Source of the DNA: Balamuthia mandrillaris
Taxonomy: Eukaryota; Discosea; Longamoebia; Balamuthiidae
Reading direction: 5' to 3'
Assembly (NCBI GenBank): GCA_031835245.1
Contig: JAVKOQ010000016.1
Coordinates: 248,001-312,000, forward strand
DNA length: 64,000 bases
The notes below the pieces were generated by a model that saw nothing but the letters and a program-made list of their open reading frames with translations, was not told the DNA's origin and did no database searches. Positions 28,779-54,766 of this stretch are shown piece by piece. Position 1 is the first letter of the stretch, and every line of letters starts with the position of its first letter. Made by a program: the position numbers and the translations under genes.

Positions 28779-31700
28779 TCAGTAGTCTTGCCAGTCACCC
28801 TCGGAGAGGAGAGGGAGGTCCTCCGTGCCTTCCTCTCCCGAGAAGTTGACGGCACCCAAGGAGGCCGAGAAATCCCTCAGCTTTCTCCTCCGCCAGACCA
28901 CGGCGCCGGAGAGCACGGCCACCACCGCACAGAGCGCCACCCCCACGCTCACCGACACCGCCACCACCAGCTTCACGTTCATTCCATCATCTTTGTCGCT
29001 TCTGGTGTCCACCAAGACTTGCACGTCCGGGTCGTAAAACATTTGCTTGCCCATGGGCATTCGGATCACCAACCATTGCTGTTCCTCTCCATCTTTGCTG
29101 ACCGTTTCCACTTTGGCGCTTGCGGCCTGTTCCTCTCCATCCACCAAACACACTTGCAACAGGTTGAGGGTGACTTGGGTGCTGTCGGTCCTCCACACGC
29201 TGTTTGTCACCACCGTGTCACCTCTTCCTTCTCGTAGATGCGTTTGGTCGGCTGGGATCAGCGCGCTATCTGAACTGTTCATTCTTACTATCAACTCCAA
29301 CCATCTCGCCGTTTTCCCTTCCTCGTCTCTGATCCGTTTCTCCGAACGCGCAAGACGAGAAGGAGAGGAAGAAAGCCAGTCAGCCCAACCAGAGAGCAGC
29401 ACGCTCCATTTGGTGAACCCAGCACCCACCTTGAATGTCCTGTTCCCCACATGAAACTCCTTCTCCTCCTCCACCACCGTGAATCTCCATTCCACTCCCT
29501 TTCTCCCTTCCTCCTTCTTTTCATCTTCCTCCACCTCCCACAGGAAGGCAATGGTCCTCTCATCCAAGAAAGAGGAGTGGTAGCCAGAAGAAGGGAAGCT
29601 CATCTTCCTCACCTCCTCCCCTTTCCCGTCCAACTCTCGAATGGAGTGAAACACAAAGTCCAAGCGGAGGTGCTCTTGAGGGGCAGTGCCTTGCTTGGGG
29701 ACCAGTTGGAGGTTTGGGGTGTTGTCTGGGAACTGGCTGGCTGTCTCTCCTGCACCTGGATCGATGCTGGGCTTCACCTCCTCTTCACCCAAGACAGCAG
29801 ACCAAGAGATCAGAGGGAAGTGGTTGGGTGTGCTGCTTCGGCATCCGATCTCCACCTTGGTTGCTGCCAAGGGTTGCTTGGAGGAGAGGGCGAAGCGGAA
29901 GGATGTCCAAGTGCTGGTGGACAGGTCCCCCACTTGGCAGAGCACGTGCTTCTCTGCGCTTTCCTCCAGCAGCGCAGTGCATGGCAATGGGCTGGTGAAG
30001 GAGGAGTCTGCCAGAGAGGAAGCACCATCCCCATCAAGGATGGTGAAGTTGAAGAAGCACTCCACTTGGCGAGCCCACGATGGTCCTCCGCTCTTCATCT
30101 CCACGGCAAACTCCTTGCTGTTGTTCTTGCTCTCTTGTTTGTGCTTGAAGAACCAACTTGGTCAACAGAACGCCAGCAGCGGAACCAGAAAAGAAAAGCG
30201 AAAAAAGCCAGAAGGAAAGCAAACCAATCGAGGAGGTGTGGAAGGCTGGAGCCATTCCACATTCATCAACAGCTTGTTGCTCAACGTTGTGGTGGTCAGC
30301 TCTCCCTTCACCTTTGGCAGCTCCTTCCCCAACTCGTCCTTCAGCTCCACCGAGAACTCCACTGCTGCCAAGGAGGAACCCGAGTTCAACCGCACTGCAA
30401 TCTCCTTCTCCACTTCCCCTCCTCCTCCAACATCCAACTGGCAGCTCAACTCCACCTCCTTTTCCTCCTCCTGCTCCACAGCCGCCTTGCAAAAGGCTTG
30501 AGTGAAGGCATTTTGCACGAGGGTGATGTCCAGCGGAAAATGCCAGGTCATGGAGGTGGCAAGACTGGTTGAAGGCCCTCTGTTGCAAAGCTTGAACTGG
30601 ATCTCCGTCTCCCCTCCTGCCACAATCCTTGTTGCTGCTTCATCTGTTCTTGGATGGTGTTGGTTTGTTTCCATGTTTCATGAGTACGAAGCCTTGCAGT
30701 TATTGAAAAACAAAATGAAAGAGAAGGAGGGAACCAAGGAGAGCAAAGGCAAGTTGAATGTTGGGAGAAGGTTGAGAGGATTGTGGTGTGGGAGGAGTGA
30801 AGATGGTCTCATCTGCCGCACCACAGGTTGGGATGGCGATGACCACATTGTCTCTCATTGCAGGAGGCAATGGCAGGGTCTGAAAAGAAAAGCTTTCTGC
30901 ACCGGTGACGAGGAGGGAAACAACATTAGAAAAGCATACGAAGAAAAAGAGGAAGGAAGAATGAAGAAAGAAGGACAACGAAAGAGAAGAGAAGAGAAGG
31001 GAAGGGAAGAACGAACCAAAGGAGGCAGGAGGCAAACTGGAGTGTTGAAACCCACAACGAAGCTTGCCATCCCCTCCATCCCCACATGTCGAAGGAAGAG
31101 CTTCCCGATCCAACACAGACAATGGGGAGAAGGACACCACACAATAGCCTTCTCTCACCATTGCTGCTCCCCTGTTGGACACGTTGAATGAGGCCTGGAG
31201 GGGTGTGCCTTGCCCTGGTACGAATGAAGCAGGAAGGTCCTTGGTGAAGCTCGCTTCCAGTGTGGGTGGAATGGCGACGATGAGCTGTCCATTGGTTGCC
31301 GTCTCTTTCTGCAACTCATCCTTGACGCGAATGGAGAACCCCACCACGGACAGCGTGGAACCTGCTGCCAACTCCACCTCGATTTGTCTCTCCTCTTCTC
31401 CAGGTTTGACGTTCAAGGTGCAGGTGAGGGCGAGATGATCGGCAAGGACGGAGGAGGAGCAAAAGGACTGGGTGAAAGGAGTGTCGAGGATCTTGATGTC
31501 CAGAGGAAAGGTCCAATCCAGGGAAGTGGAAAGGCTTGTGGAAATGCCCTTGTTGCCAAGCTTAAAGCGGATGGCTATGGAACCACCTGGCCTGATTGAA
31601 GCACCCGAGTCTTGTTTGGTTTTTGTTTCAAATGATAAGAAAAAAACAAAAAAAGAAACAAAACCGAGAACAAAAAACTAAAGTGAATAAGGAGGCGTAC

Positions 31701-32838
31701 TGAGCAAAGCAAGAGAGAGTTGGATGTCGGGAGAAGGGCGCATGGATTGTGGGGTTGGGGGAGTGTATTGCTTCAACTCATTTCCTGCATTGTTGTTGCA
31801 GGAGGGCACCGCCACCGTCACAGTTTCTCGCATCTCTGCTCCCAACACAAGAGTCTTGAATGCAAAGCTTTCTGTTGAGAACGAGCAACGCAAGCATCAG
31901 TTCGAACTCAAGAGCTAGAACAAATCGACAAGGAAAGGAAAAGCAGGCAAAGAAGAGGACAAAGAACGGAAAGAGAAGAAAGAAAGAAGAAAGAAAGAAA
32001 GAAACGACAAGAAAGAAAGAACAAGGAAGAAAAAAACGAACGAAACCAACGGACCAGAGGTGGCAGGTGGCAATGGACTATTTCGAAAGTTGCAACGAAT
32101 GGTGCCCTCCGGCCCATCTCCACAGTTGCCCGGCAATTGCAAACGATCCAAGGAAGAGCGTGGGGTGAAGGCCAACAAGCAAAAGCCGCCATTCACCAAA
32201 GAAGGGCCACTGCTGGAGACCTGGAAAGAGAAGGGAAAGACGTCATCGCGCCCAGGCACGTAAGAAGAAGGAAAGTTGGAAGTGAATGTGGCTGTCAGGC
32301 TGAAGCTTGGCCGGATCTGGATGTCCACCGAGTAGTAATCCTTGTGTGTCCCATCAAAGGTGAAGTACCTTAGAGGCTCGTCCGGTTGAACGGCCGTAAG
32401 AGGAACGTTATATTGTCTTTGGAAGGAGACAATTCCTCCACCAGTGCCACGCACGATGCAGTGGTTTAGCTGCGGGGCGGGATCGCAGGTGGCCTTTAGA
32501 CCAAGCGGAACGTTTGAAGGCTTGAGCCCTTCAACAGTTCATAAAGATATGTTAAAAACCAGTTCTGCACCAAAAAAAAAAAGCACGAAAGCGAAAGTAC
32601 TATCAGTAGCCCAAGCGGTGTATGGTCCAGACTTGCCCAACGTTATTTCACAAGGCGGCTCATTGGCTTCCTTCACGAGGACGGAGAGCGTGAGAACAAA
32701 GGGCTGGCCAGGAGCTGGAGTCGGGGGATCTGTCGACCACGACTTGCCGGCACAAGTAATAGCAAACGAGCCGGAAACAAAGGTGCAGCTGAACATCACG
32801 TACAAGATGTACATGTTCACGAACGCTTTGGTGGGCAT
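28779..32838 (-). CDS. Large type I membrane protein T1 of an unrecognised surface family
   Basis: ATG at 32838: signal peptide (MYILYVMFSCTFVSGSFA is in it), then SWSTDPPTPAPGQPF. Ordered modules follow. B: RPSFSLTATFTSNFPSSYVPG to NCGDG. C: ESFAFKTLVLGAEMRETVTV to SPDIQLSLAL. D: IRPGGSIAIRFKLGNKG, STSL. Then second copies B', C' and D', so T1 is the only paralogue with the block duplicated. Region E (SGGPSWARQVECFFNF to FDPDV-type sequence MFYDPDVQVLVDTR) is followed by one TM helix (LVVAVSVSVGVALCAVVAVL) and a tail with FSASLGAVNFSGEE, stop 28779-28781. B and D look like beta-sandwich adhesion modules. No known family is assigned. T1 lies 150 bp downstream of P1 on the same strand. Confidence 0.78.
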
Positions 32839-32989
32839 CTCGTGGAGAAAAGAACAGCTCCGGCTCGACTGCAGCCTCTTCCGGCAGGGATACAAGCGCT
32901 CCACAGTTTGTCGTTCAAGTTTGTTCTTTGTTGCTTGTTTCTTATTACCTCCATATTAATTATTACACGAGGCATTACACATTTGTTGC

Positions 32990-35436
32990 CTACGATGCTA
33001 CCCTCCAAAAGAACGGGAGCAACGGAGAGCATCCAGAGGCAGAGCCGTCTTCGTCTGTGGACGAGGAGGAGAGAGCTGAATCGTTGCTGTCCTCCGCTAC
33101 ACAAGCATCCACACCCACAGAGCCAGCTGAGCTCATCTGACCTTCCGGACAAGAGAGGCACTGCAGCTCCTCCGAGGACCAATACTGGTTGGCCTCGCAT
33201 TGGGTGCACACCACGTCCTCGAAAGGGTGCCATAGGAGCACATCGGAGCCACAATCGAAGCCGCACATGTTTCTGCCCACGAGCCTTGCGTTAGGATGTT
33301 CGCACTCATCGCTGCATTCTCCATTTGCGTTCAGCACATAGTTTTCCTTGCACCCTGATGATTGAAATGTGAAAAGAACAGATGCATTAGCGCCCTCAAA
33401 AGAAGGAAGAAGCCAGCAAGAGCGACATGAAAGAGGGGTTCCTACGCAACACAGCAAGACGGTCAGAATCCAGAGAAAAATAAACACTTCCATCGACTGC
33501 AATGGACAGAGACTGGTCTAGCACCGGACTCCCATTGGTAAAGTTCCAAAGCAGTTGAAAGGTCGCCAAGTCTACTGCAAGTTTTTCATTTGCAACTGAG
33601 AGATACAGCACCCCGTCCTGAGAGACTGCCCCCGCTGCTTCATTCTCCTGCGTTACCTGCCCTTCAAGAGTTTGAAGGAGATTCACTTGTGTGCCAGTTT
33701 CTGGGGACAGTCCGACTACTACCAACGTGTTGGTCTGCATCTCTCTCCAAAAAGTAATAATGGACCTATATTGTTATTCTCAGTTAGTCTGGGGGAGAGA
33801 GGAGAGAGGAGAGAGAACACAAGAAACATGTCTGAAAGCTTACCCATCTATGGGACTCGTTGTTGGCACTTGCCTGCTGTTGGAGAATATACCATCTGCA
33901 AGGTCATCGATGGGCGTTCCCCATTCCAGCTCTCCATTCTCTGTGTTCAATGCTAACACACCACCTTCATTAATTGCCTGTTATTTTGTTGTGGTTAAAA
34001 CCTGGATCAGCCTAGATACAAAGAACAATGAAGAAAAGAGAAGAGAAGAGAAGAGAAGAGAAGAGAAGAGAAGAGAAGAGAAGAGAAGAGAAGAGAAGAG
34101 AAGAGAAGAGAAGAGAAGAGAAGAGAAGAGAAAAAGAGAAAGAGAGAGAAGAGAAGAGAAGAGAAGAGAAGAGAAGAGAAGAGAAGAGAAGAGAAGAGAA
34201 GAGAAGAGAAGAGAAGAGAAGAGAAGAGAAGAGAAGAGAACAGAAGAGAAGAGAACAGAAGAGAAGAGAAGAGAACAGAAGAGAACAGAAGAGAACAGAA
34301 GAGAACAGAAGAGAACAGAAGAGAAAGATAAGAGTGACAATAATGGTGAGGAGAGGCATACCACAAACAACAATCTGCCATCTTCGGACAGAGAGGGCGA
34401 CCCTCCGGTGATATATCTTGGGAAAGGAGCTATATCTGCCAAAGAGTGGCTCCAAACCACCTCATTCTGTGGAAGGCGAATGGCCAAGCACAACGAGGCT
34501 GCCCAAGGAGATTCAGTGACGAAATAGAAGACCCCGTTACCATTGGTGGCTGGCGTGACAAACTCTACGTAGTCACCTCCACCATATAACTCTGCCGTGG
34601 CATTATTGCGAACTTGTTCTTGAAGAGCAAAGTCATAAACCACCATATCGCTATTTGCGTCCAAAACATACACCAGACCATCCACTGCAATGAACAGTAA
34701 GAAGAAGAAAATGAACAAGAACAAAAAGAAAGTTGCAAGAGCAGAAGAACGTAGGAAGTAAAGTCAACAATAAAGATGAATGGAGTCAGCAAAACAGACG
34801 CAAAAACTGGAGAAACTAAACGTACCAACAGAAACAGAGGGTCCGTAAAGAGAAAACACATAATGGGGCCAGCTGGTGGTGCTATTTACTGTTCCGGTAC
34901 TCCAGTCGACAACAGTTACACCGTCTCTATCCAACAAAAACATCTTTCCATCATCAGTAACGGCTGGATGGCCGGTGAAGACTTCCTTATCTACGACGAT
35001 GGAAGACAAGTTGCCGGTGAGGCTGTTCCAGTGGCGCACCACGTTCTTCCCAGCAAAGTAGCTGTTGCCCCGTTGGTCATGCGCGACACCTCCTGTGTTC
35101 CACTCCTCTTCCAACGTTACAAACTTTTTCAATGGTTAGACTTCATAAAACAAAACACAAACACAACCCGCATTCCATAGTTCAACAAGCAATAGAGAAC
35201 AACAGAAACAAGTAAACGAGAATGGCAGAGAAGAAACCAATAGCAAAAAGCAACATTACCTCGGTGTTGTCAAGCGAATGAAAGCCTGCTGCAGTGGGAT
35301 GGACGTTGGAGTTAAGGAGGTCAGCATGGGCTTTGCTCCACCCGGCAGCTAGCTCTTGCGCGCTCACCACCACCAACGGCACACAGCTGGCAAGCAGCAG
35401 GAGCACGGGGACAGCACCGATCATACACCGTTTCAT
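32990..35436 (-). CDS. Beta-propeller surface protein P1 (PQQ-like repeats, Cys-rich domain, GPI-type end)
   Basis: Exon 1 (35436-35260) gives a signal peptide (CMIGAVPVLLLLASCVPLVV) and QELAAGWSKAHADLLNSNVH, the conserved start of the family. Later exons contain PQQ/BamB-like propeller blades: GHPAVTDDGKMFLLDRDGV, VDGLVYVLDANSDMVVYDF, GNGVFYFVTESPWAA, FQLLWNFTNGS, SIAVDGSVYF. The last exon encodes an about 80-residue Cys-rich domain (CKENYVLNANGECSDECEHP; CTQCEANQYWSSEELQCLSC), like ephrin-receptor GCC repeats. A Ser-rich stretch and a hydrophobic C-terminus (PLLPFFWRVAS, stop 32990) suggest a GPI anchor. One intron holds a 300-nt sense CTCTT repeat. Propeller binding of an extracellular ligand is inference. 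Confidence 0.8.
34028..34325 (-). repeat. CTCTT/CTTTT pentanucleotide minisatellite in an intron of P1
   Basis: About 300 nt of GAGAA/AGAAG units on the plus strand; variants GAACA cluster at the right end. Polypyrimidine on the sense strand of P1. Confidence 0.9.
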
Positions 35437-35810
35437 TTGTGTAGTTGTGTGTGTAAAGGTTGAATAACCAAAGTGAGTTGAAACTGAAACGAAATGAAAA
35501 AAAAAAAGCTTCTCTGTGTAACGCTGCGGCATAAAAAAGGAGAATGGCCGTGTGGTATAGCACCGGAAAGGAAGCGGTACGAAAAAGGACAGGACGCTCG
35601 GCGATAATGCATTTTTTGAACGCAATTAGCATCCAGGCAGCAAACACGGTTCATGGTCTGAGACGTCACCGTTTGTAATTCGGTTTGGGGGCGACGGAGT
35701 ATGAGAACAACGCACGGCAGAGCTGAGAGAAGAAGGCTGGAAAAAAATCCCCGAGTATATCTAATCCTGCACACCGGGGCAGCTCTCTCAAAGAAAAAAA
35801 ATTGAGCACT
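35437..35810. other. 5' flank of P1
   Basis: No gene seen. It contains a short A/T-rich run and a CRE-like GACGTCAC at about 35662. No CACGTG element was found here, unlike the P2 and P3 flanks. Confidence 0.4.
35794..35801 (-). terminator. Pol III terminator of tRNA-iMet
   Basis: Eight consecutive T residues on the minus strand, 9 nt after the tRNA 3' end. Confidence 0.75.
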
Positions 35811-35882
35811 TAGCAGAGAGAGGTTTCGATCCTCCGACCTGTGGGTTATGGGCCCACCACGCTTCCACTGCGCCACTCTGCT
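35811..35882 (-). tRNA. tRNA-iMet (CAU), initiator
   Basis: A 72-nt cloverleaf on the minus strand with acceptor AGCAGAG pairing with CTCTGCT, D-arm TGGCGCAGTGGAAGCG, anticodon stem with the three G-C pairs (GGG/CCC) flanking loop CCCATAA, and the A-containing T-loop ATCGAAA instead of TTCGA. These are the hallmarks of eukaryotic initiator tRNA. A run of eight T on the sense strand (35794-35801) terminates it. Confidence 0.96.
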
Positions 35883-36088
35883 TTTCGTTTGCTTGCGGGA
35901 GAGCTTCTCTTGCCGTTCAAGTTACGCCCTGCGGAATATTCATTCTTGGCATACTTTGCATTCCTGCAATATTTCACGACGATGACGTCATGCAAATATA
36001 AATTAGGGAAGAACGATCAGAATTCGATCAGAAAATTCCCTTTAATAAATGGATGATGGCAGCATCCGGTGACATCAAAGTTGCCAAT

Positions 36089-36096
36089 ATAAAAAG
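36089..36096 (+). promoter_or_regulatory. TATA box of the basic W/Y-rich protein gene
   Basis: TATAAAAA, 51-58 nt before the ATG at 36147. Confidence 0.55.
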
Positions 36097-38891: not shown

Positions 38892-39258
38892 GTCGTCCTA
38901 AGGCGTCCGTTAAGTGGCCTTTGTGCTCGGGATAAGTGAAAACATTCCACCCCCCTTTCACGTTCTTCCTTTCCCTCGTTTTACCCTGCCCCTTGCTTTT
39001 TTTTTCCTTCTTCTTCTTCTTCTTCCTGTTTGGTTGCGAGCAGAAAGCAACGGTCGATCAACAAAACAAAAACAAAAAAGTAACGTTCCCTTCTCTTCTC
39101 TTCGTCGTTCTCTTCGTCGTTCTCCTTCTCCTTCTCCTTCTCCTTCTCCTTCTCCTTCTCCTTCTCCTTCTCCTTCTCCTTCTCTTCTTCTTTTGTTATT
39201 TCATTGCGCTCATCAAACTCTCATCTCTTCGGTGTATCAAAAAAAAAAAAAAAGAAAG
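38892..39258. other. 5' flank and leader of the VIT-VWA gene
   Basis: Contains the CATGTCGTC element at 38889-38897, a CTTCTC hexanucleotide repeat at 39118-39185 and an A run just before the ATG. The open frames through the pyrimidine repeat are not thought to be coding. Confidence 0.45.
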
Positions 39259-39863
39259 ATGTGCAGGTGCGGAGGAGGTTTGTACTACTATTACCATCCT
39301 CGGTACAACCCGGGCAAGCAACCTGCCCTCCAAAGAGAGCAGCAACAGAACCGCAAGGAGTGCCCTCTCCGCGGCGTCCGTGTGGAGCTTCAAATCTCCA
39401 ACTTCACCGCTCAAGTATTGGAGCTCCCCCTTTTCTTCTTTCTCATCGGATTTAATCCCTCTCATCAAGATGAACCGATCGTTAACTCTTGTTTTTAAAC
39501 AGGTGCAGCTGCAACAACGTTTCGTCAACAACGAAGAGAACCCCATCGAAGCCGTCTATGAGTTCCTGACGGACGATCGCTCCGCCGTCTGCAGCTTTGC
39601 CGCGCAGGTCGACGGCCGCATGCTGCAGGGCCAGCTCATGGAGAAGACGAGGGCCAAGGACGAGTACGATGACGCCATCGCCAGCGGAGGCGGGGCGTAT
39701 CTCCTCAAGGAGGACAAGACCAACAAGAACATGTTCCGCGCCAACGTGGGCAACCTCCCTCCGGGCAAGGAGTGCACGCTGTTTGTTACTTATGTTACGG
39801 TATGTTTTTGTTCCATCTGTCTTTCTTGTCGTTTCTTTCTTTCTTTCTTTCTTTCTTGTCGTT

Positions 39864-39895
<32 letters not shown>

Positions 39896-39961
39896 GTCGT
39901 TTCTTTCTTTCTTTCTTTCTTTCTTGTCGTTTCTTTCTTTCTTTCTTTCTTTCTTGTCGTT

Positions 39962-39997
<36 letters not shown>

Positions 39998-43220: not shown

Positions 43221-44248
43221 ATGAATGCTCCTCTTCTTGTAGCTCTTCTGGCCAGCGTGGTGTTTGCGGTTCTGGGAGGAGTGGAGGGACAGGAGCTGGC
43301 TGCCGGGTGGAGCAAGGCCCATGCCGACCTGCGCAACTCCAACGTGCATCCCACCGCTGCCGGCTTGCGCTCTCTGCAACACACCGAAGTAAACCGTTTT
43401 GTCTCTCTCTGACTGCAGTACTTTTGAATAACGAAACGCTTTGTTGAACAGCTTGTGCTGCTTGAAGGCATCACCGCAGTGGGACCAGCGGCTCATGAAA
43501 ACGAACAGGGGAACAGCTTCTATGCTGGGGGAGCCACACTGTTCCACCACGACCTTCGGAGCGGAGGTGCGGCAAACGACTTCAAGTTAAAAAAGTACTA
43601 CCAGCAAGGGCACCCGGCTGTTACGGACGACGGTAAAGTGGTGCTCCTTAACATGGAGTCTTTGGAAATGGTGGACTTGGCAACAGGAGAGGTGAAACTG
43701 ACTGAATGGTCCTCAAGCGGGTGGACTCTTTTTGGCTCCTCTGTTACTGTTGGTAACGTTCTGCTTGTTGTTCCTTTGTCATTCTTCCTGGTATTTATTT
43801 CTTGTTTGCTTATTCACGCCTTCTGTACCTGCTTCTTCTTTGTTCTTCTTCTTCTCCTCTCTGTTCTTTCGTTCGTCACAACTTCCAGTGGATGGATTGA
43901 TCTACGTGCTGAACTCCGACGCGGAGCTGGTTGTCTTCGACTTTGAGCTGGAAGAACAGGCTCGCAACAACGCCACAGCGGAGATTTGGGGTGGAGGCAA
44001 CTTTGTGGAGTTCGTGACCCCAGCCACCGACGGCAAGGGCGTCTTCTACTTTGTCACGGAGACTTCAGAGGCGGACGCCAAAGCCTTGGCCATTCGCTTT
44101 CCCGAGAATGAGGTCGTGTGGAGCAAGTCGTTGGGCGAAGGCAATCACTTCCCTTCAGTTGCGGACTATGTTGCTGGCGGCTCGCCTTCCCTGTCGGAGG
44201 ATGGCAGACGTTTGTTTGTGGTATACCTTTCTTTTGTTAACTCTCTTA

Positions 44249-44280
<32 letters not shown>

Positions 44281-45293
44281 ACTCGTTTGCTGCTTGTACC
44301 TTGGCAACCACAACCTCCGCATTATAACAACAACCACAGGCGTTCGAAAGAGGGGGCGTGATGGCATTGAACACAGAGAATGGAGAGGTGGAATGGGCCA
44401 CCTCCATCACGGACCTGCAAGAAGGAGACTATTACACTGACAAGCAAGTTCCCACCATCAGTCCTGTTGATGGGTTTGTCTTTTTCTCCCATTCTTTCTC
44501 ACTCCGCTTTCTCAAAACCGTTTTATTTCTTTCATGGCTTTGTCCAGTTCTATCGTCACTTACTGGCAGGAGCAGCAGTCCAAGTCGTTGGTGGTGGTGG
44601 CTCTCTCCGCAAATACCGGAGAAGAAGTGAACTTTCTTCAATTTTTGGATGGGCAGGTTGAGCCCAACAGCTCCGAAGGCCCAGGCGTGTCCTCCGTTGA
44701 CGGCGTCTTCTATGCTTGCGTTTATGGCAACATCGTAGCTGTGGACTTGGAAAAGTTCGAGGTGCTGTGGAACTACACGATATGGAGAGACCATTCGATA
44801 GGCTGGTCCCCCTCTATTTCCGTGGATGGAGGAATCTACTCCCCGTTGGCCAGCTTCGTGTTACGTATGATGCCTTCCTCTTTGGTTCTATTTGATGGTA
44901 TGAGTTTGTGTTTGACAATGAACTTCAGGTTGCAAAGAAAACTACACTTTGAACGCGAATGGAGAATGCAGCGATGAATGCGCCCATCCCAAGGCAAGAT
45001 TCATCGGGAGGAACATGTGTGGCTTCGACTGCGGCACTTCCACCGCCCTTTTGCACCCTCTCCTGGCCAACGAGACCGTGTGCACAGCGTGTGAGGCCAA
45101 CCAGTATTGGTCGACCGAGGAGCTGCTGTGTCTCCCCTGTGCGGAGGGAAGGAACAGCCCTGCAGGTTCTATCGGTGAAGATGCCTGCGTGGAAGAAACC
45201 AGTTCCTCGACTACCGGGACGGAGGATGGCGCCAACAGCTCTGGCAGCTCCGCTTTGCTTCCTTCTCTCTTCCACTTGCTGGCAAGGGGCTAG
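43221..45293 (+). CDS. Beta-propeller surface protein P2
   Basis: Six exons join in frame to 538 residues: 43221-43388, 43452-43752, 43889-44220, 44340-44473, 44548-44864, 44929-45293. Signal peptide LLVALLASVVFAVLGGVEG is followed by QELAAGWSKAHADLRNSNVH. Propeller blades include GHPAVTDDGKVVLLNMES, VDGLIYVLNSDAELVVFDF, GKGVFYFVTETSEADA, VMALNTENGEVEWATS and DLEKFEVLWNYTIW. The C-terminal Cys-rich domain has 12 cysteines (CKENYTLNANGECSDECAHP; CTACEANQYWSTEELLCLPC). The Ser/Thr-rich end and hydrophobic tail (SALLPSLFHLLARG) suggest a GPI anchor. Closely similar to P3 and more distantly to P1. Confidence 0.85.
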
Positions 45294-45496: not shown

Positions 45497-47499
45497 ATGA
45501 AAGCAAGCTTGTTTATAGCGATTGTCAGCGTGGTGTTTGCGGTTTTGGCAGGGGTGGAGGGACAAGAGCTGGCTGCCGGGTGGAGCAAGGCCCATGCCGA
45601 CCTGCGCAACTCCAACGTGCATCCCACCGCCGTCGGCTTGCGCTCTCTGCAACACACCGAAGTGCGTATTTGATTCGTTTTGTCTTGAGAACAACCACCG
45701 CTAACGACTACCGCATAACACAAGAGGGTGGAGCTTCTGGGCGATAACCAAAGGGACAACGGAGGAGCGGGCCATGACCAACAAGGCAACACCTTCTATG
45801 CTGGCAACCGCGCGCTCTTACACCTGGACCTTCTGACCGGAGAGGTCGCAGCCAACCTCACTTTGCCGACCCACAGCCACAAAGGACACCCCGCAGTTAC
45901 GGACGACGGCAAAGTGTTGCTCCTCACCTCGCGCTCTTTGGATATGGTGGACTTATCCACGGGAGAGACGAAACAGGCGGACTGGTCTGTCATCGATTGG
46001 GAACTCTCAGGCTCCTCTGTCACCGTTGGTTCGTGTTCCTCCATGTGTTCTTGTTGTTCTTCGTTCTTTTCTTCTTTCGAAGACACTCAACTGGTTCGTT
46101 CTGTGCTCCCTTTGGCCGACCTCCTTTGGCCTTCCAGTGGATGGGCTGATCTACGTGTTGAACTCCGACGCAGAGCTGGTTGTCTTCGACTTTGAGCTGG
46201 AAGAACAGGCTCGCAACAACGCCACAGCGGAGATTTGGGGTGGAGGCAACTTTGTGGGGTTCGTGACTCCAGCCACCGATGGCAAGGGCGTCTTCTACTT
46301 TGTCACGGAGACTCCAGAGGCGGATGCCAAAGCCTTGGCCATTCGCTTTCCCGAGAATGAGGTCGTGTGGAGCAGAAAGACGGGCGATGGCAGTCCTTTT
46401 TCAGTTGCGGACTATGTTGCTGGCGGCTCGCCTTCCCTGTCGGAGGATGGCAGACTTTTGTTTGCGGTATGCCTGCTTCTGCCTTCTGTCTGTTGTTGCC
46501 GTTCTCTCTTGTCCGTCCTCTTACCTTGGTAATGACATTGCACAGGTGTTCGAAAGAGGGGGCGTGATGGCACTGAACACAGAGAATGGAGAGGTGGAAT
46601 GGGCCACCTCCATCACGGACCTGCAAGAAGGAGACTATTACAATGGCAAGCAAGTTCCCACCATCAGTCCTGTTGATGGGTTTGTCTTTTTTCTATTCTC
46701 TCCTCTCTTTTCCTTGTGTTCTTGTTACAAACGAGTTACCATTATTGCTTTCTCCAGTTCTGTCATCACTCACTGGAGAGAGCGGAACAACGAGTCTTTG
46801 GTGGTGGTGGCTCTCTCCGCAGAGACAGGAGAACAGGTAAACTTTCTGCAAACCTTAGATGGACAGATAACAAGTTCCCTCTGGGCTCCGGGCGCGTCCT
46901 CTGTGGACGGAGTTTACTATGCCTCGGTCTATGGTAACTTCGTGGCAGTGGACTTGAAAGAGTTTGAAGTGCTTTGGAACTTCACGGTGTGGAGAGATCA
47001 GGTGGAACACCAGTCGCCTTCTATTGCTGTGGATGGAAGCGTCTATTTCCCGTTGCCGGACGGCTTGTTTGTGCTACGTACGAACGCGTTTTCTTTCTTT
47101 TGAGTTTCTTCTTCGTGCGAATGTTGATGTTGAATAACCTATCTTCGCGTTATAGGTTGCAAAGAAAACTACGCGTTGAACGCGAATGGAGAATGCAGCC
47201 AAGAGTGCGCCCATCCCAAGGCAAGGTTCGTGGGCAGAAACATGTGCGGTTACGATTGTGGCTCCTCCACCGCCCTTTTGCACCCTCTCTTGGCCGAACA
47301 GACGGTGTGCCATGAATGTGAGGCCAACAAGTATTGGTCGGCCGAGGAGCTGCAGTGTCTCTCCTGTGCGGATGGATGGGGAAGCCCTGCTGGCTCCGTT
47401 GGCGAGGATGCCTGCATGCAGAATGATGCTTCCTCCTCAACGGAGGATGGCGCTGACTCTGGCAACTCCAAGTTGCTTTCTTTCCATGTTTTGTTCTGA
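45497..47499 (+). CDS. Beta-propeller surface protein P3
   Basis: Six exons in frame to 531 residues: 45497-45661, 45725-46028, 46138-46466, 46546-46679, 46758-47077, 47156-47499. The exon phases and the 134-nt length of exon 4 are identical to P2. Signal peptide LFIAIVSVVFAVLAGVEG, then the shared QELAAGWSKAHADLRNSNVH. Propeller and Cys-rich domains as in P2 (CKENYALNANGECSQECAHP; CHECEANKYWSAEELQCLSC), and a short hydrophobic C-terminus (KLLSFHVLF). Exon 3 is almost identical to that of P2 at DNA level, while exons 1-2 differ more, which points to recent duplication or gene conversion. Confidence 0.85.
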
Positions 47500-47989
47500 A
47501 CACGATGTCTTCGCTGGTCTGCATGGTGAGAATAAATGCTTCCATCCTTTTTTTTTTCTTGCTGAAGAGCACCTTGTGAGGAGGAGATGAGGGTGCTCCA
47601 AACTGGAACGCTGCTGCCCCACTTACCTGCATTCCACAACATCCGTTGGAAGCGAGGAAGGGACGAGGAGGAGCCAAGCACTTTGGATTTGTCTCACGAG
47701 GAAGGAGAACGGCAATGCCGTTCAATGCTGCGCCGACAGACCAGGCCAGATTACATTTTGATTTATGATTTGTGCTTTGATTGATTTGATTGAATCATGG
47801 CGTTTTCAAAGCACCAATCAACAGGTTCCAATGTCGACAGAAGTAAATTGGGAAATGACGTCAATATGTGGAAAAATTGTGCTGAAGTTGTGTCTATCAC
47901 GTCGACAAAATGAATAGATATTAATTATGTCTGCAGGAGTTTCCTTTCTTCGGGCTGGCACAAACAAGACAAACCAAGACCCCACCAAG
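47500..47989. other. Intergenic region between P3 and T2
   Basis: No supported gene. Includes TGTCGAC-type sites (near 47831 and 47899) and an AT-rich block before the T2 start; an in-frame upstream ATG at 47927 could extend T2 by 21 residues. Confidence 0.45.
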
Positions 47990-50900
47990 ATGCAAAGGAG
48001 GAACAGGTGCTTCTGTTCCATGTCTTCCAACCCCGAACATCCCCCGTCTTCTCACGCTGTGTTGCTGCTGTTCCTCCTCCGCTCCTGCCTGCTCGCCTGC
48101 TGCGTTACCGGCGCCTCCGCTTTGGCGTGCGGCCAACACTCTTGGTCCACGGTGCCAACAAACCCGGCCCCGGGCGAGCCCTTCGTTCTCAACCTGGCGA
48201 TCCAAGTGTGGAAGGGTTCCTTTCACGACTTGTTTTGCGTTCTGACGCTTCTACCGCATCCTGATTTTGATGCCTGGGCCACCGATGGTTCGGTTTTCTT
48301 TCTCTGTTTTTGAATCTTCTTTACTTGTTTCTTCGCTTCACTCACAGGCTGCTTTGCGTTCCCATTCTCTGCACAGAACTCTCTGTACCAACACCTCCAC
48401 CCAATTTTCGCGTTAGGTGCAAAGATAACCGCTGCATAGCCGCCGGAGAGGGCGTTTTCTATGCTCAGAAGCACTTCAACCCGCCTCTCTCAGCCGTGCA
48501 GCCATCGCCTCTCACGTACACTCTTGCCGCCTTTGGTACCCCTCAGTACAACGCTTTGGACATCAAAATAGGTCCGAGGTTCAACCTCAAGGCCAACTTC
48601 ACCGCCAAGCTTCCACCAGCTTTTGTGCCTGGCCAACAAACTGTATTTCACCCTTCCTTCAACCTTTCGAGCAGCGGCCCTTCTTTGGTTAAAGCTGGCT
48701 ATTGCTTGGTCTCCGTTGCACCGCTCTCTCTGTTGGATCGCGAAGCCTTGCCGCCTACTTGCGGAGATGGCCCGAACGGGACCATTCGCTGCAACTTTCA
48801 AAACAATAATTTGCCGCCTGCTACCATTGGTGTGTGCCAGACTCTTTCTTCTCCTTCTTATGCTTCTTTCTATCTCTCTCTCTTCTTCACCTTCTGCTGC
48901 TGCTCTCTTTGTTTACAACGTTTGATGTTTTTGTCTTTTTCAGAAAGCTTTGCTTTTAGGACGGTTCCTTTGGGTCCCTCTGCTCGAGACAAGATAAAAG
49001 TGGAGGTACCATCATGCAACAACGCAGCAGGCAATGAGTTGGACCATTACTCTGCGCCCGACCCTCTGACCTCAGCGCCATCTCCAGACATTCGCCTTGC
49101 CTTTTCTTTGACCAGTAGGATTTCACTTTGTTTATAGTTTTTGAGTCTAACACGAACGACCTAACCAACAACAAACCTCAAAAGATAAATCTGGTTCCGT
49201 CATCGTGCCTGGCGAGCTGGCTGCGATCGGTTTCAACCTGTCCAACTCGGGCCAGTCCACCAGCCTCGCCACAACGATGACCTGGCATTTCCCTCCAAAC
49301 CTCACCATAATCCACAATTCCTTCACTCGATCCTATTGTTGCCTCAATGACTCTCTCAATTCACTCTCCTGCACGTTGGACGTAAAGCCAAACCAAGTGG
49401 TGAAAAGCCAAGTTTTGGTGCTTGCGGACGCCTCTTTGGCTGTTCAAGTGATGGATTTCTGGGTGGATTGCAAGGATGAGCTGGAGAAGGAGCTGCCCAA
49501 AACAACAGGCCAGTTGCAAGTGACTCCTTTCAGCAACGACGTGTTGCTTAAAACTCAATGGCTCTCTCCTTCCAACATGTCCACTCAAAGGGTAAGCCCG
49601 ATTTTCTTTCGGTTATTACTCTCGTTCCTTCTTTCCCTGATTCATGAATACCGTTTTGAAGGAACACAACAACGACTACGCTTTCTCGGTGGAGGCCAAG
49701 AGTGGAGGACCTTCTTGGGCTCGCCAAGTGGGCTGCTTCTTCAACTTCACTATCCTGCACGATGACTCCTCCCTAGCCGAAACCACGTTCTCCACTTCTT
49801 TGCCAAAACAAGCATGCCTCATCCTAACAGACACCATCGCATCCAAGCACGTGCTCTGCCAAGTGGGGGACCTGTCCACCAGCACTTGGACATCCTTCCG
49901 CTTCGCCCTCTCCTCCAAGCAACCCTTGGCAGCAACCAAGGTGGAGATCGGATGCCGAAGCAGCACACCCAACCACTTCCCTCTGATCTCTTGGTCTGCT
50001 GTCTTGGGTGATGGTGGAGCAAAACCCAGCATCGATCCAGGTGCGGGAGAGACAGCCAGCCAGTTCCCAGACAACACCCCAAACCTCCAACTGGTCCCCA
50101 AGCAAGGCGCTGCCCCTCAAGAACATCTCCGCTTGGACTTTGTGTTTCACTCCATTCGGGAGTTGGACGAGAAAGGGGAGGAGGTGAGGAAGATGAGCTT
50201 CCCTTCTTCTGGCTACCACTCCTCTTTCTTGGATGAGAGGACCATTGCCTTCCTGTGGGAGGTGGAGGAAGATGAAAAGAAGGAGGAAGGGAGAAAGGGA
50301 GTGGAATGGAGATTCACGGTGGTGGAGGAGGAGAAGGAGTTTCATGTGGGGAACAGGACATTCAAGGTGGGTGCTGGGTTCACCAAATGGAGCGTGATGC
50401 TCTCTGGATGGCCTCCATCCAACCTCACTTCCTCTTCTTCTCCTCCTTCTTCTTCATTCTCTTCTTCTGCAGAACATTGGAGAAGGAGAGGGGAAGAAAA
50501 GAAAGAGGAGAAGATGGGGAAATGGTTGGAGATGAAGGTGAGCATGAAGAGTTTGGATGGTGGGTTGACACTCCAACACCTCAACCACTCCCTCTTGCAA
50601 GGCGGAGGCGGGACCCGAACGAGAGGAGTGTGGAAGAGCAACCACACCCAAGTCACGGTGGGCCTGTTGCAGGTGTGCTTGGTGGATGGCCGAGAAAGAG
50701 CAGCATTTGCCAGCGTGGAGGAGGAAGGAGGAGGAGAAGGAGAACAATGGATGGTGATCCGAATGCCCCTGGGCCAAGAGATGTTTTACGACCCGGACGT
50801 GCAAGTCTTGGTGGATGCCACGGGAGGAGGAGAGAGGGAGAGCGGGGTGAATGTGAAGCTGGTGGTGGCGGTGTCGGTGAGCGTGGGGGTGGCGCTCTGT

Positions 50901-51056
50901 GCGGTGGTCTCCGTGCTCTCCGGCGCCGTGGTCTGGCGGCGAAGAAAGGTGAGCGAGATCTCGGCCTCCATGGGCGCCGTCAACTTCTCGGGTGAGGACT
51001 TTTCGATGGAAGGAGCAGAGTATGCTCCTCTTTTGGAGGCCCACGACGAGTATTGA
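47990..51056 (+). CDS. Type I membrane protein T2
   Basis: Five exons in frame to 907 residues: 47990-48287, 48377-48829, 48944-49114 (171 nt), 49185-49591 (407 nt), 49662-51056. Signal peptide in HAVLLLFLLRSCLLACCVTG, then HSWSTVPTNPAPGEPF. Modules B (RFNLKANFTAKLPPAFVPG to CGDG), C (ESFAFRTVPLGPSARDK to SPDIRLAFSL), D (VPGELAAIGFNLSNSGQSTS) and E (SGGPSWARQVGCFFNF; MFYDPDVQVLVDA) occur once each. One TM helix follows (LVVAVSVSVGVALCAVVSVL), a WRRRK stop-transfer and a 45-residue tail with ISASMGAVNFSGED. ATGs at 47927 or 48020 are alternative starts. No known family recognised; surface receptor or adhesin is inferred. Confidence 0.83.
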
Positions 51057-51173
51057 ACCAACACAACGCATTGAATGTCGCTTTTTCTGTTCTCTCTCTT
51101 TCTCCTTGTTGTTGTTTGGTGTATAGTAAGGAAAGAAATGTCTGATATCTTCTTGTCACTATCTCTCCAGTTG

Positions 51174-51177
<4 letters not shown>

Positions 51178-51207
<30 letters not shown>
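51178..51207. repeat. GA dinucleotide repeat between T2 and T3
   Basis: About 30 nt of GA on the plus strand, in intergenic DNA. Confidence 0.8.
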
Positions 51208-51208
<1 letters not shown>

Positions 51209-51310
51209 CTCGCTCTCGCCGATAAAGCACATAAATGATTGTGAAGTTCACACTTTGCTTCCGGCCAACCATATTAGAACAAAACAAACGATAACGAACA
51301 GTACGTGCCA

Positions 51311-54300
51311 ATGCGCAAGCGACCAACGCGTTGGTTTGTTGTGGCAACGGTGCTCCTCCTCCTCCTCTGGTCGTGCGGCAGCTTTTCAGGTGCAGATGGT
51401 TGGCTGTGTGCTCCCCACGCTTGGTCCACGCTGCCGGAGAAGCCGGCCCCTGGGAACCCCTTCGTGCTGAGCCTGGCCGTAAACATTACAGAGGCGGACC
51501 CGCCCTGCGTGCTTGAGCTTCAACCGCACCCTCAATACGACGCGTGGGCAACCTCTGGTGCGTGTTAAACCCTTTCTCTCCTCGTCGTTTCTCTTTCGCT
51601 TTCTCCCATCTCGCCTATCGCTCATCTATTGCATCTATCACTCTCCACCACCAAGGCCTCGCCGTCTCAGACCTTCCTGCTGGCACAAGTGCCGACTGCA
51701 GGTCCCAAAGGAACCGTTGCATTATGGAGGGCACCGCGTCCGCTCCTGTCATCGCTCAAATAACCTACGAACCTCCTCCAACTGCAGCCCAACCCACCGA
51801 ACCTCTCCATTACTCCCTTGGCATGGGTGACAAGGAGCATGAGAGCACCAGCACCTACTCTTTGGACATCACCCTCAAGCCAAGGTTCAGCCTCACCGCA
51901 AACTTTACCTCCGATCTGCCTCGGTCCTATGTTCCAGGCCAAGCCACGCCTCTCTCCTTCTCTTTCGACGTTCTCAACACGGGACCTTCTGCGGTTCGTG
52001 ATGGCTTTTGTCTGGTGTATTTTGCTCCGTCGGTTATCGTGGATCGTGACGCTCTCCCTTCGACCTGTGGAGATGATGAGCCAAGCGGCCTCCTTCGTTG
52101 TTCGTTCCTTAGCTTGCCGCCCACCACTCATGGTATTCTTTCGTTCACCCGTTGTCGTTTCTTTCTTTCTTTCTTTCTTCTTTCTTTCAACTCTCTTATG
52201 GTGAGTTAACTTCTCGACGTGCCATCGCTCCGGCCTGCAGAAAGCTTTTCGTTTCGGACACTCCCAGCGGACCCGGCGCTGAGAGAAGTGGTCGTGGCTG
52301 CGGTTCCCACATGCAACAACACGGCAGGCGATGAGCTCGTTCGTTACACTCCTCCCATTCCAGAGACCTCCCAACCGTCTCCAGAAGTTCAACTTGACTT
52401 CGCGTTGAAACGTAAGTATTGTCGTTTATTTTGTTGTCTGTTCTTTGTACTTTGTGATAGTTTCTTCATGATACTCTTGTTCTTCTTGTTCTTATTCCTC
52501 TTCTTCTACTTGTTGTTCTTGTTCTTCGTTCTTGTTCTTCTTGTTCTTCTTCTTCCTTCTTCTTCTTCTTCTTCTTCTTCTTCTTCTTCTTCTTCTTCTT
52601 CTCCTCCTCCTTCATGAGTTCACAAACTATCATATAGGGAATCCAATACCTGTTGTAGCAGGTAATGCAACTACCATTAGGTTTGCGCTGTCCAACTCAG
52701 GCCTTTCAACGAGCCTGTCTTCCTCCATGACTTGGCTGTTTCCTCTCAACCTCACCGTCACGCCAAACTCCTTCACTCAAAACTATTGTCAGCCACCTCT
52801 GCGGGAGGAGAATGTGGAGCTGAGTTGCTTGGTGGACGTTGCGCCAGGCGAAGTTTTAGAAAACGACATCCAGGTCCGTTTGGACGCGAACTCTTCGGTG
52901 TCGGCTACGAGCTTCTCTGTGGAAGTCAAGGACGAGCTTAAACAGGGGCTGCCAATAGTAACGGGAACGTTGAATGCAATGACATTCAGCAAAAACGTGT
53001 TGATGAAAGTGCAATTGCTGAATACTTCCACCGTCCAAACCAAGGTTTGGTTTTTAATGTTCTTGTTCTTTGTTCCTTGCTCTCCTCTTTGTTCCTGTCG
53101 GAGTTCTCTTTCTTTTGCTTTTGCTGTTTCGTTTGTTTTGTTTATCTGCTCGGTTTATGTTTTGGTGTTAATCGTTGCAACACAAAAGAACTTTGAAGTG
53201 GCGATGAAGAGTGGAGGACCTTCGTGGGCTCGCCAGGTCAGTTGCTTCTTCAACTTCACCAGCCAGAACGACGATTCCTCTCTTGCGGACGTCAGCTTCA
53301 CCACCTCTTTGCCAAAACAAGCGTGCGTAGTGTTGGAGGCCGCTTTAGCCACCAAACATGTTCTCTGCCAAGTGGGCGACCTGTCCACCTCTTCTTGGAC
53401 CTCCTTCAACTACTCCCTCACCTCTCCAGACCCTTTGCTATCCACCAAAATGGAGATAGGATGTCAAAGCAGCACGCCCAACGACTTTCCTCTGGTCTCC
53501 TGGTCTGCTGTCTTGGATGACGATGGAGCCAAGACCGCCATCGACCCTGATACCGGCAGTACCGCTAGCCAGTTCCCAGACAACACCCCAAATCTTCAAC
53601 TCGTTCCCAAGCAGGGCTCTCAACCGCAAGAACACCTCCGCCTTAACTTTGCCTTTCATTCCGTCAAGGAGCTGGATGAAAATAGCAACGTGGTAAGAAG
53701 CATGACCTTTCCTCCTTCGGGATATGCCTCTACTTTCTTGGACGAGAGAACCATTCAGTTTGTGGTGGCGCTGGATGACGAAGAAGGAGATGGAAGGAAG
53801 AGGGTGGAATGGACATTCACAGTGGTGGAAGAAGAGAGGGAGTTTCATGTAGGCAACACAACGTTCAAGGTGGGTGCTGGGTTCAACAAATGGAGCGTGA
53901 GCCTGTTAGGCTGGCTACCATCCCCCAATCCTTCGTCTCCGTCATATTCTTCTGTTTCATCATCCCCCTCTACTTCTTCTTCATTGTCATCATCAGCTTC
54001 CTCTTCTTCCTCTTCTTCCTCTTCTTCCTCTTCCTGTTCCTCTTCCTCTTCCTCTTCCTCTTCCTCTTCCTCTTCCTCTTCCTCTTCCTCTTCCTCTTCC
54101 TCTTCCTCTTCCTCTTCCTCTTCCTCTTCCTCTTCCTCTTCCTCTTCCTCTTCCTCTTTTTCTTCTTCTTCCTCCTCCTCCGCCTCTACTGGATCTGGTT
54201 CCTCCACAACAGGAGAGGTAAGATGGCTGGAGTTAAAAGTCAGTATGAACAGTTCCGATGGCGCTTTGAACCCACATCATCCAGCTGCCGTGAACTTGGC

Positions 54301-54766
54301 AGAAGAAACCGCAACCAAAGGGATGTGGCGGACCAACCACACCCAAGTCATCCTCAACTTGCTGCAAGTGTGTATGGTGGATGGCAAAGAACAACCAGCA
54401 TTTGCCAGAGTGGAAGAAGAAGAGGCGAGCAATGAAGATGAAGCGCAACAACAATGGCTGCTCATCCGACTGCCCGTTGGAAGGCACATGTTTTACGATC
54501 TCGACGTGCAGGTCTTGGTGGACACAAGAAGTGAAGAAGACGAGGGAACGAACGTGAAGCTGGTGGTGGCCGTGTCGGTCAGCATCGGTGTGGCTGTGTG
54601 CATGGTCGTTGCGGTCGTCTCTGGCGGAATTGCGTGGCGGATCCGAAAGGCACGGATGTTCTCCGCTTCGTTGGGTGCCGTCAACTTTTCTGTAGAGGAG
54701 CTCTACGCCCCTCTCCTTGATGATGATGCCGGTGGTGGCTCGCAAGATGCATCCTATTTTCTGTAA
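51311..54766 (+). CDS. Type I membrane protein T3 with a long poly-Ser tract
   Basis: Five exons in frame to 959 residues: 51311-51557, 51656-52132, 52241-52411 (171 nt), 52638-53044 (407 nt), 53189-54766. Exons 3 and 4 have exactly the lengths seen in T2. Signal peptide WFVVATVLLLLLWSCGSFSG; HAWSTLPEKPAPGNPF; modules B, C, D and E as in T2. Inside E a tract of about 65 Ser, encoded by TCCTCT repeats (53984-54180), replaces a short Ser-rich loop. The TM helix (LVVAVSVSIGVAVCMVVAVV) is followed by RIRK and a tail with FSASLGAVNFSVEE, ending at 54764-54766. Extracellular side carries many N-x-S/T sites. Confidence 0.83.
53984..54180 (+). repeat. Coding TCCTCT hexanucleotide repeat in T3
   Basis: In-frame repeat of TCCTCT with minor variants encoding almost pure Ser; the paralogues T1 and T2 have only short Ser-rich loops here. 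Confidence 0.9.

What the first reader, a model, noticed from the sequence alone, without database searches (positions are those of the whole stretch)
28779..54766. Two unrecognised cell-surface families co-located as an inverted duplication (P1-T1 against P2-P3-T2-T3)
Three beta-propeller/Cys-rich/GPI-type proteins (P) and three large single-pass proteins (T) lie within 26 kb, always with P upstream of T on the same strand and in opposite orientation in the two arms. Exon phases agree within each family, and T exons 3 and 4 are exactly 171 and 407 nt in both T2 and T3. Persistent pairing of a GPI-type propeller with a type I receptor-like protein that has a conserved cytoplasmic motif (A-S-x-G-A-V-N-F-S) suggests a ligand-receptor, adhesion or self-recognition system. 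That function is inference; the linkage is seen directly.
Basis: partly seen in the sequence, partly recalled or inferred. Interest (0 to 1): 0.82.

Follow-up and report, generated by a model that had tools for sequence, protein, structure and literature searches.

The report
Amoeba receptors sharing kinase-receptor outer parts
A gene cluster in the brain-infecting amoeba Balamuthia holds two surface or secreted protein families whose pairing turns out to be local rather than a rule; one family looks like a receptor without a kinase that shares part of its outer region with kinase receptors of the same amoeba.

Summary
The six genes, their order and matching exons are real; the genome is Balamuthia mandrillaris. 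"Persistent pairing" fails: P-T adjacency was found at one locus and on collinear contig C212 (about 90% identical; probably a second haplotype). Twelve dispersed T-type loci and six dispersed P loci share no contig, and P1 is broken on C212. P is a BamB/PQQ-type beta-propeller with a Cys-rich end; none of nine tails read has a convincing GPI signal. T is a modular type I protein. Part of its Ig-like ectodomain is shared with receptor kinases of tyrosine-kinase type (kinase exons read at C477; C-lobe at C4). Its membrane-proximal part and GAVNFS tail are shared with receptors carrying another ectodomain. GAVNF[S/T] occurs 18 times in 64.8 Mb, always at T-type loci; 13 of 13 tails read hold a YxxPhi or acidic-dileucine-like motif. 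Low-confidence models resemble lysosomal GLMP there, and Ig-like/integrin-leg sandwiches distally. T1 and T2, on opposite strands, share a 563-column tract at 97%, with a similar tract on C212: gene conversion; a single clade of locus T genes is rejected. Most likely: an endocytic or phagosomal receptor family beside a propeller family. Function is inference.

The parts
32990..35436 (-). P1: six exons, 538 aa, secretion signal, PQQ-type beta-propeller, Cys-rich C-terminal part
   Evidence: first 311 residues equal QOT17_002779, which carries a precomputed PF13360; broken on contig C212
28779..32838 (-). T1: seven exons, 1140 aa, type I membrane protein with one extra internal Ig-like module pair
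   Evidence: identical to NCBI QOT17_002777
43221..45293 (+). P2: six exons, 538 aa, PQQ-type propeller (PF13360, 41.7 bits against a cut-off of 27.6)
45497..47499 (+). P3: six exons, 531 aa, PQQ-type propeller
47990..51056 (+). T2: five exons, 907 aa, type I membrane protein (NCBI QOT17_002785 keeps intron 2 as coding)
51311..54766 (+). T3: five exons, 959 aa, type I membrane protein with a long poly-serine linker
49845..50407 (+). T2 side of the gene-conversion tract shared with T1 (97.3% over 563 columns, with a 226-nt identical run)
29389..29951 (-). T1 side of the same tract, on the opposite strand
50853..50939 (+). Second shared tract, over the transmembrane segment of T2 (97.7% over 87 columns to T1 28890-28976)
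50136..50813 (+). T2 residues 602-827: membrane-proximal module whose model matches the GLMP luminal domain
   Evidence: low-confidence model
28840..28856 (-). GAVNFS cytoplasmic motif of T1
50973..50989 (+). GAVNFS cytoplasmic motif of T2
54674..54690 (+). GAVNFS cytoplasmic motif of T3

Best explanation
T is a Balamuthia family of type I, kinase-less receptors built by domain shuffling. Ig-like (integrin-leg-like) repeats, part of which Balamuthia also puts on receptor kinases of tyrosine-kinase type, are mounted on a membrane-proximal GLMP-like beta-sandwich module, a transmembrane helix and a 37-44-residue tail. The tail carries the invariant GAVNFS motif and YxxPhi/acidic-dileucine-like sorting signals near its end. 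The likely working: the distal repeats bind something outside the cell (prey, substrate or another amoeba); the tail drives uptake and delivery to endosomes, phagosomes or lysosomes; T may act as a clearance, adhesion or co-receptor counterpart of the kinase receptors. P is a separate family, probably secreted, of PQQ-type propellers, possibly lectin-like. Here P and T are neighbours in one cluster, in which T1 and T2 exchange sequence across the inverted arrangement by gene conversion. Shown: gene structures, families, genome distribution, tail motif specificity, shared ectodomain with kinase genes, conversion tracts. Inferred: binding, trafficking and function.
Against: The structure models are poor (mean pLDDT 48.8 and 47.8), so the GLMP and integrin-leg resemblances are leads; Foldseek's own list for the second model has IgE-Fc on top (E 5.9e-4, probability 0.21) and no GLMP among the 50 rows shown. 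By sequence profile nothing credible in Pfam, NCBIfam or the PDB matches T. In the distal part the integrin match ties with complement domains and cohesins. Short sorting motifs arise by chance (up to 0.50 for the T3 tail), and the tails are related to one another. One window inside the conversion tract (T2 residues 561-600) is less alike between T1 and T2 than between alleles (0.91 against 0.97). No expression or localisation data were available. The kinase exons at C477 and C4 are assigned by reading frame and position, not by transcripts; PF07714 alone does not separate tyrosine from serine/threonine kinases, and the tyrosine call rests on the HRDLAARN loop at C477 (recalled signature).
Confidence: 0.48

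Rival explanations
1. One reading: P and T are a co-adapted pair, a propeller ligand or co-receptor and its type I receptor, kept together for joint regulation or self-recognition.
For: Three P and three T genes lie within 26 kb with P upstream on the same strand in both arms. About 0.025 P-T pairs within 5 kb would be expected by chance from 9 P and 18 T loci. The P genes at the locus form one clade.
Against: 12 dispersed T-type loci and 6 dispersed P loci share no contig. P1 is broken on C212 while T1' has no internal stop. T genes of the locus are not one clade. A PQQ gene 3-5 kb from T-like genes on C477, C414 and C475 is, at C477, different from P in the frames read and has another frame in between.
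Confidence: 0.13
2. T is an endolysosomal membrane glycoprotein, like GLMP: an accessory subunit or protective luminal coat for a transporter, not a surface receptor.
For: GLMP-like match of the conserved membrane-proximal module, type I topology, sorting-like tails, 6, 14 and 13 N-glycosylation sequons in T1, T2 and T3. [quoted passage not shown]
Against: T has several further ectodomain modules upstream of the GLMP-like one, and part of these occurs on receptor kinases. A multigene family with diverging distal domains suits recognition better than a transporter subunit. PF15065 does not match T by sequence.
Confidence: 0.22
3. P and T are the two halves of a split integrin-alpha-like receptor: P supplies the propeller head, T the Ig-like legs and membrane anchor.
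For: Foldseek puts integrin chains first for T; P is a beta-propeller; the genes are adjacent. Integrin alpha homologues have been reported in 23 amoebozoan taxa (review PMC9197732, passage read).
Against: The P propeller is PQQ/BamB-type, not FG-GAP. No GFFKR-like tail (motif recalled). Dispersed copies are unlinked. The leg match ties with other Ig-like sandwiches. FG-GAP repeats exist elsewhere in the genome.
Confidence: 0.04
4. Two unrelated expanding families happen to sit in one region prone to duplication; the P-T order carries no meaning and the two functions are independent. This concerns the linkage only and is compatible with the best explanation, so the odds overlap.
For: Dispersal of both families, non-matching trees of P and T, T1-T2 conversion tracts.
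Against: The order P upstream of T holds in both arms, and chance adjacency of members of two small families is unlikely a priori (0.025 expected), although one founding event is enough.
Confidence: 0.4

Closest known systems
GLMP / NCU-G1 (glycosylated lysosomal membrane protein)
   Different: No sequence-profile match; T has extra distal modules and a GAVNFS motif; no transporter partner known.
Amoebozoan receptor tyrosine kinases (7 of 22 Acanthamoeba tyrosine kinases have predicted transmembrane domains, PMC4053784, passages read)
   Same: A T-type ectodomain stretch (T2 residues about 319-570) is found on the Balamuthia kinase genes C477 and C4 and on related loci.
   Different: T lacks the kinase; it has a GLMP-like module and a short GAVNFS tail instead.
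Integrin alpha chains (legs)
   Same: Tandem Ig-like beta-sandwiches, single transmembrane segment, short tail; top Foldseek hits.
   Different: No FG-GAP propeller and no GFFKR; the match is not exclusive and the model is poor.
BamB / PQQ-type propellers (PF13360)
   Same: P2 is above the Pfam cut-off; 7 of 7 P relatives in the protein database carry a precomputed PF13360; BamB is the best PDB sequence match of the P alignment, over one short stretch.
   Different: P has a secretion signal and a Cys-rich C-terminal part and is eukaryotic; PQQ binding was not tested.

Membership tests
Integrin alpha | FG-GAP beta-propeller head | tested here: not met
   Pfam scans of T3 and of six T proteins list no FG-GAP at E up to 1, while FG-GAP is found elsewhere in this genome.
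Integrin alpha | Thigh/calf leg fold | tested here: inconclusive
Integrin alpha | GFFKR-type juxtamembrane motif (recalled) | tested here: not met
   Tails of the T genes read W-R-[RI]-R-K, then S-A-S-x-G-A-V-N-F-S.
GLMP / NCU-G1 | Sequence profile PF15065 | tested here: not met
   No match in hmmscan of six T proteins (E up to 1) or of three C-terminal modules (E up to 10; HMMER's filters drop most weak matches). The genome search is uninformative: nothing rang in the controls.
GLMP / NCU-G1 | Luminal-domain fold | tested here: inconclusive
GLMP / NCU-G1 | Type I membrane protein with short tail | tested here: met
   N-terminal hydrophobic signal and one C-terminal transmembrane segment in T1, T2 and T3 by hydropathy.
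GLMP / NCU-G1 | MFSD1 partnership and lysosomal location | not testable with these tools
   Needs localisation and pull-down.
Receptor tyrosine kinase | Cytoplasmic kinase domain | tested here: not met
   T tails are 37-44 residues from the basic cluster on and no kinase Pfam match. A kinase is present at the T-related loci C477 and C4.
PQQ_2 / BamB-type propeller (P) | PF13360 above cut-off | tested here: met
   P2 41.7 bits, P2' 36.8, C19 copy 33.7 against 27.6; the other P copies were not scanned here.
PQQ_2 / BamB-type propeller (P) | Binding of PQQ or another ligand | not testable with these tools
   No assay. Tachylectin (PF14517) matches below its cut-off only.
GPI-anchored protein (P) | Hydrophobic C-terminal attachment signal | tested here: not met
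   Nine tails read (P1-P3, P2', P3', C19, two on C6, C24:191k); best 12-residue hydropathy 1.58 or less in 9 of 9, and no 19-residue window of 1.6 or more outside the N-terminus in P1-P3. Two C24 copies were not read. A scale-based test, not a dedicated predictor.
Sib / integrin-beta-like adhesins | vWA domain | tested here: not met
   No vWA in T. A VIT-vWA gene lies between the arms but is a separate gene.

The most novel reading that the evidence does not exclude
Balamuthia runs a two-tier recognition system: receptor tyrosine kinases and kinase-less GAVNFS receptors carry the same kind of ectodomain, so the kinase-less forms act as scavenging, decoy or phagocytic partners of the kinases. 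Their distal domains diversify while the membrane-proximal part is kept uniform by gene conversion between inverted copies, and the P propellers are secreted ligands or opsonins for the system.
Probability: 0.12. Interest if true: 0.85.

Novelty: new variant of a known kind. Interest (0 to 1): 0.55.

Why it matters
Amoebae must tell prey, substrate and self apart, yet few of their receptors are known. T gives a sequence-defined receptor family (GAVNFS tail) in a usually fatal brain pathogen and ties part of its ectodomain to receptor kinases of tyrosine-kinase type; phosphotyrosine signalling was until recently thought generally absent from Amoebozoa (PMC4053784, passage read). It shows domain shuffling and gene conversion at work in such a family and gives a testable entry to how a solitary amoeba combines kinase and phagocytic receptors. 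It also warns that gene neighbourhood in one window can suggest a ligand-receptor pair that the rest of the genome does not support.

Tried and rejected
Integrin alpha as a family label: searched by Pfam, by fold and by genome family search. PF08441 found nothing, but nothing rang in the controls either, so that call is uninformative.

GPI anchoring of P: rejected on the nine tails read. One duplication unit for the locus T genes: rejected by tree and AU test. The AU p-value is extreme, rests on one model, and the tree holds 5 of the 12 dispersed T loci (those with this part of the protein).

Independent P-T linkage at C477/C414/C475 through PQQ_2 genes: looked promising (3 of the 6 contigs with PQQ_2 matches also hold a T-like gene within about 3-5 kb; one search did not ring at the P family itself). 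C477 and C414 are 95% identical in the T-like stretch, so probably not independent. At C477 the PQQ gene has an N-terminal hydrophobic segment unlike P, no P-like Cys-rich end was seen in the frames listed, and a minus-strand reading frame lies between it and the kinase gene. C475 and C414 were not read. Left open, weak.

A right-handed beta-helix for the N-part of the C391-type receptors was my guess by eye; Pfam found nothing. That part was not found at kinase loci (7 matches on C391, C332, C58, C325 and C17).

Relatives outside Balamuthia: three protein searches returned only Balamuthia (6, 7 and 6 proteins). Their reach is limited (about 8000 candidates scored each; one search returned no protein of the divergent Balamuthia paralogues that were in its own query alignment), so absence elsewhere is not shown. 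Literature: searches 'Balamuthia mandrillaris + genome' (25 of 272 listed), 'Balamuthia/surface protein/galactose-binding/adhesion' (15 of 162), 'Balamuthia + integrin' (15 of 30) and 'Balamuthia + tyrosine kinase + receptor' (12 of 36) listed no paper whose title or abstract start describes these genes. Of these I read only passages of PMC10471605 and PMC8569187: neither main text holds the words 'integrin' or 'surface', and PMC10471605 has no 'adhesi'.
Full report
OBSERVATION. I rebuilt the six genes from the raw sequence, choosing splice sites by hand with the paralogues as guide. All 29 introns are GT-AG and all six models read open from ATG to stop. P1-P3 have six exons with phases 0,1,0,2,1 in all three, and exon 4 is 134 nt in all three. 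T1 has seven exons because one module pair is duplicated inside it. T1 equals the deposited protein QOT17_002777 letter for letter; the deposited T2 (QOT17_002785) keeps intron 2 as coding sequence. The source is Balamuthia mandrillaris. The window is C15:248001-312000 of a 64.8-Mb, 775-contig assembly.

ONE LOCUS, TWO CONTIGS. Contig C212:8001-37000 is collinear with window 25029-56155, mostly at 89-93% DNA identity (96% over 25029-30171, 80-86% in a few patches), including the VIT-vWA gene between the arms and sequence on both sides. I read it as the second haplotype. On C212, P1 is broken: window 34458-35789, which holds exons 1 and 2 and the first two thirds of exon 3, has no counterpart, and part of the last exon is also missing. 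T1' has no internal stop in 1137 codons, although the ATG used in the window is not conserved there and the frame differs at the very end. P2', P3', T2' and T3' show no internal stop before the region of the expected end; the start of T3' was not resolved.

PAIRING. The P search scored all 38 of its 38 candidates and hit five contigs only: C15, C212, C6, C19, C24. The T searches scored 50 of 140 and 44 of 110 candidates and hit C15, C212, C113, C48, C529, C32, C240, C332, C58, C391, C152, C335, C17 and six weaker contigs (C695, C414, C475, C31, C4, C477), never C6, C19 or C24. Twelve dispersed GAVNFS-type T loci and six dispersed P loci share no contig. One of the twelve, C15:403k, lies on the window's own contig, about 108 kb from P3. 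A further search with a kinase-type relative (140 of 156 candidates scored) hit C6 at 2984-3514 only, about 380 kb from the P genes there. Unscored T candidates remain a gap. From 9 P and 18 T loci, 0.025 pairs within 5 kb would be expected by chance, so one founding adjacency is noteworthy, but I found no repeat. A possible exception, PQQ_2 genes on C477, C414 and C475 near T-like genes, is weak: at C477 the PQQ gene differs from P in the frames read and another reading frame lies between. C414 and C475 could not be read.

TREES. On residues 49-440, outside the conversion tract, with 11 rows, T1 groups with C32 (75% identity) and T2 with C48/C113/C529 (66-75%), against 48-49% among T1, T2 and T3. 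Holding the six locus T rows together as one clade costs 257 log-likelihood units (AU p 3e-97). The locus P rows (P1, P2, P3, P2', P3') form one clade against the six dispersed ones (support 100/100). So the cluster was not made by one recent inverted duplication. An old P-T duplication whose T copies later dispersed is compatible.

GENE CONVERSION. The T1 and T2 tracts lie about 20 kb apart on opposite strands. The last exons are 75.7% identical overall (1472 columns), but a 563-column tract (T2 49845-50407, T1 29951-29389) is 97.3% identical with a 226-nt identical run, and an 87-column tract over the transmembrane segment is 97.7% identical; two 35-column pieces are 100% and 94%. In 40-codon windows from T2 residue 521 to 680, T1-T2 identity on C15 is 0.99, 0.91, 0.98, 1.00, against 0.96, 0.97, 0.97, 0.94 for the alleles T1-T1'. 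On C212 the T1'-T2' tract starts earlier: 0.99, 0.99, 0.93, 0.99, 0.99 from residue 481 to 680, while T1 and T1' are only 0.75 alike at 481-520. So T1 is closer to T2 than to its own allele in 3 of 4 windows, and T1' closer to T2' in 4 of 5; the window 561-600 goes the other way on both contigs. The simplest reading is conversion within the chromosome, at least once on each contig. Elsewhere T1-T2 windows lie between 0.42 and 0.81, except residues 841-880 (0.93 and 0.97). Allele pairs show dN/dS of 0.27-0.39 over whole genes, that is, constraint. In T2 and T3 the first 150 columns have the highest dN of the windows (0.081 and 0.073); in T1 two later windows are higher than the first (0.100 and 0.091 against 0.080). 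I did not test for positive selection formally.

WHAT T IS. T has an N-terminal signal, one transmembrane segment and a short tail. Pfam, NCBIfam and PDB sequence searches give nothing credible. A DNA pattern for GAVNF[S/T] matches 18 places in the genome and its backwards control none. All 18 lie inside T-type hits: four on C15, three on C212, one each on C17, C32, C48, C58, C113, C152, C240, C332, C335, C391 and C529. Some of these are copies of one another (the stretches held of C335 and C15:403k are identical). At C332, C391, C152, C15:403k and C335 the membrane-proximal module, transmembrane segment and tail are like those of T, while the part upstream looks different. Of 13 tails read, 13 have YxxPhi or [DE]xxxL[LIMV]; shuffling ten of them gives 2.43 of 10, with 0.15-0.50 per tail. 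The tails are related, so this is one conserved feature, not thirteen independent ones.

T AND KINASES. Two of the weaker T hits that I could read turned out to be receptor kinase genes. At C477 a T-type stretch (37% to T2 residues 446-570, 27% to 319-442) runs into a transmembrane segment and a juxtamembrane stretch, followed on the same strand by kinase exons (PF07714 E 1.8e-24 and 2.8e-12) with an HRDLAARN catalytic loop, typical of tyrosine kinases (recalled). C4 is alike, with a kinase C-lobe (E 7.1e-13); its catalytic loop was not read. A search with the C477 piece gave 80 matches. Six loci without stops span both the ectodomain and the juxtamembrane part (C477, C414, C475, C695, C31, C4) and three more do so with one stop (C74, C355, C458). 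Eleven T places match the ectodomain part only at 37-40%. Fifty-eight match mainly the transmembrane-juxtamembrane part, and two (C6, C42) are partial with stops. Acanthamoeba has 22 tyrosine kinases, seven with predicted transmembrane domains (PMC4053784, passages read). So T reads as a chimera: ectodomain modules of kinase receptors on a GAVNFS base.

WHAT P IS. P2 passes the PQQ_2 cut-off (41.7 against 27.6 bits), and 7 of 7 P relatives in the protein database carry a precomputed PF13360. BamB is the best PDB sequence match of the P alignment (E about 1e-3, over profile positions 211-286). The Cys-rich end has only weak hits to NCD3G and TNFR-like models (E 0.07). A Tachylectin match is below cut-off, so a lectin role is only a lead. 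None of the nine tails read has a GPI-like hydrophobic end, so secretion is more likely than GPI anchoring.

VERDICT. The linkage is real and, as far as I could search, local. The attractive part of the finding is T itself: a GAVNFS-tailed receptor family that shares part of its ectodomain with kinase receptors and its base with another receptor group. A role in uptake and endolysosomal delivery is my best inference, not a result. Searches did not find these families outside Balamuthia, but their reach was short.

Noticed in passing
window 38936-42468 (+): A gene with VIT (PF08487, E 1.2e-27) and vWA (PF13768, E 2.8e-16) domains lies between the two arms.
   Followed up: partly
window 35811-35882 (-): A tRNA-Met gene (anticodon CAT) sits about 375 bp upstream of the P1 start.
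   Followed up: yes
window 53925-54195 (+): T3 has a long serine-rich linker coded by a TCC/TCT-type repeat; it is shorter on C212.
   Followed up: partly
window 34040-34340 (-): A P1 intron is filled by a TTCTC-type simple repeat; similar pyrimidine-rich arrays occur elsewhere in the window.
   Followed up: no
C15:394804-404193, C335:36813-46202 and C152:35804-49620: Juxtamembrane matches of kinase type lie within 4-13 kb of GAVNFS-type receptors with another ectodomain, in the same order on C15 and C335: possibly a second place where kinase and kinase-less receptors sit side by side.
   Followed up: no
genome-wide, G000: 58 of 80 matches to the C477 piece cover mainly its transmembrane-juxtamembrane part: Balamuthia may have a large receptor kinase family; kinase domains were not checked there.
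   Followed up: partly
genome-wide, G000: FG-GAP repeats give 43 matches (e.g. C255, C83/C347, C102/C115/C142): candidates for integrin-alpha-like propellers in Balamuthia, not examined.
   Followed up: no
window 47990-51056 (+) and 32990-35436 (-): Deposited annotation looks wrong here: QOT17_002785 keeps T2 intron 2 and QOT17_002779 covers only the first 311 residues of P1.
   Followed up: yes
window 27223-27936 (-): A LIM-domain frame (PF00412, E 1.2e-9) flanks the cluster on the T1 side.
   Followed up: no
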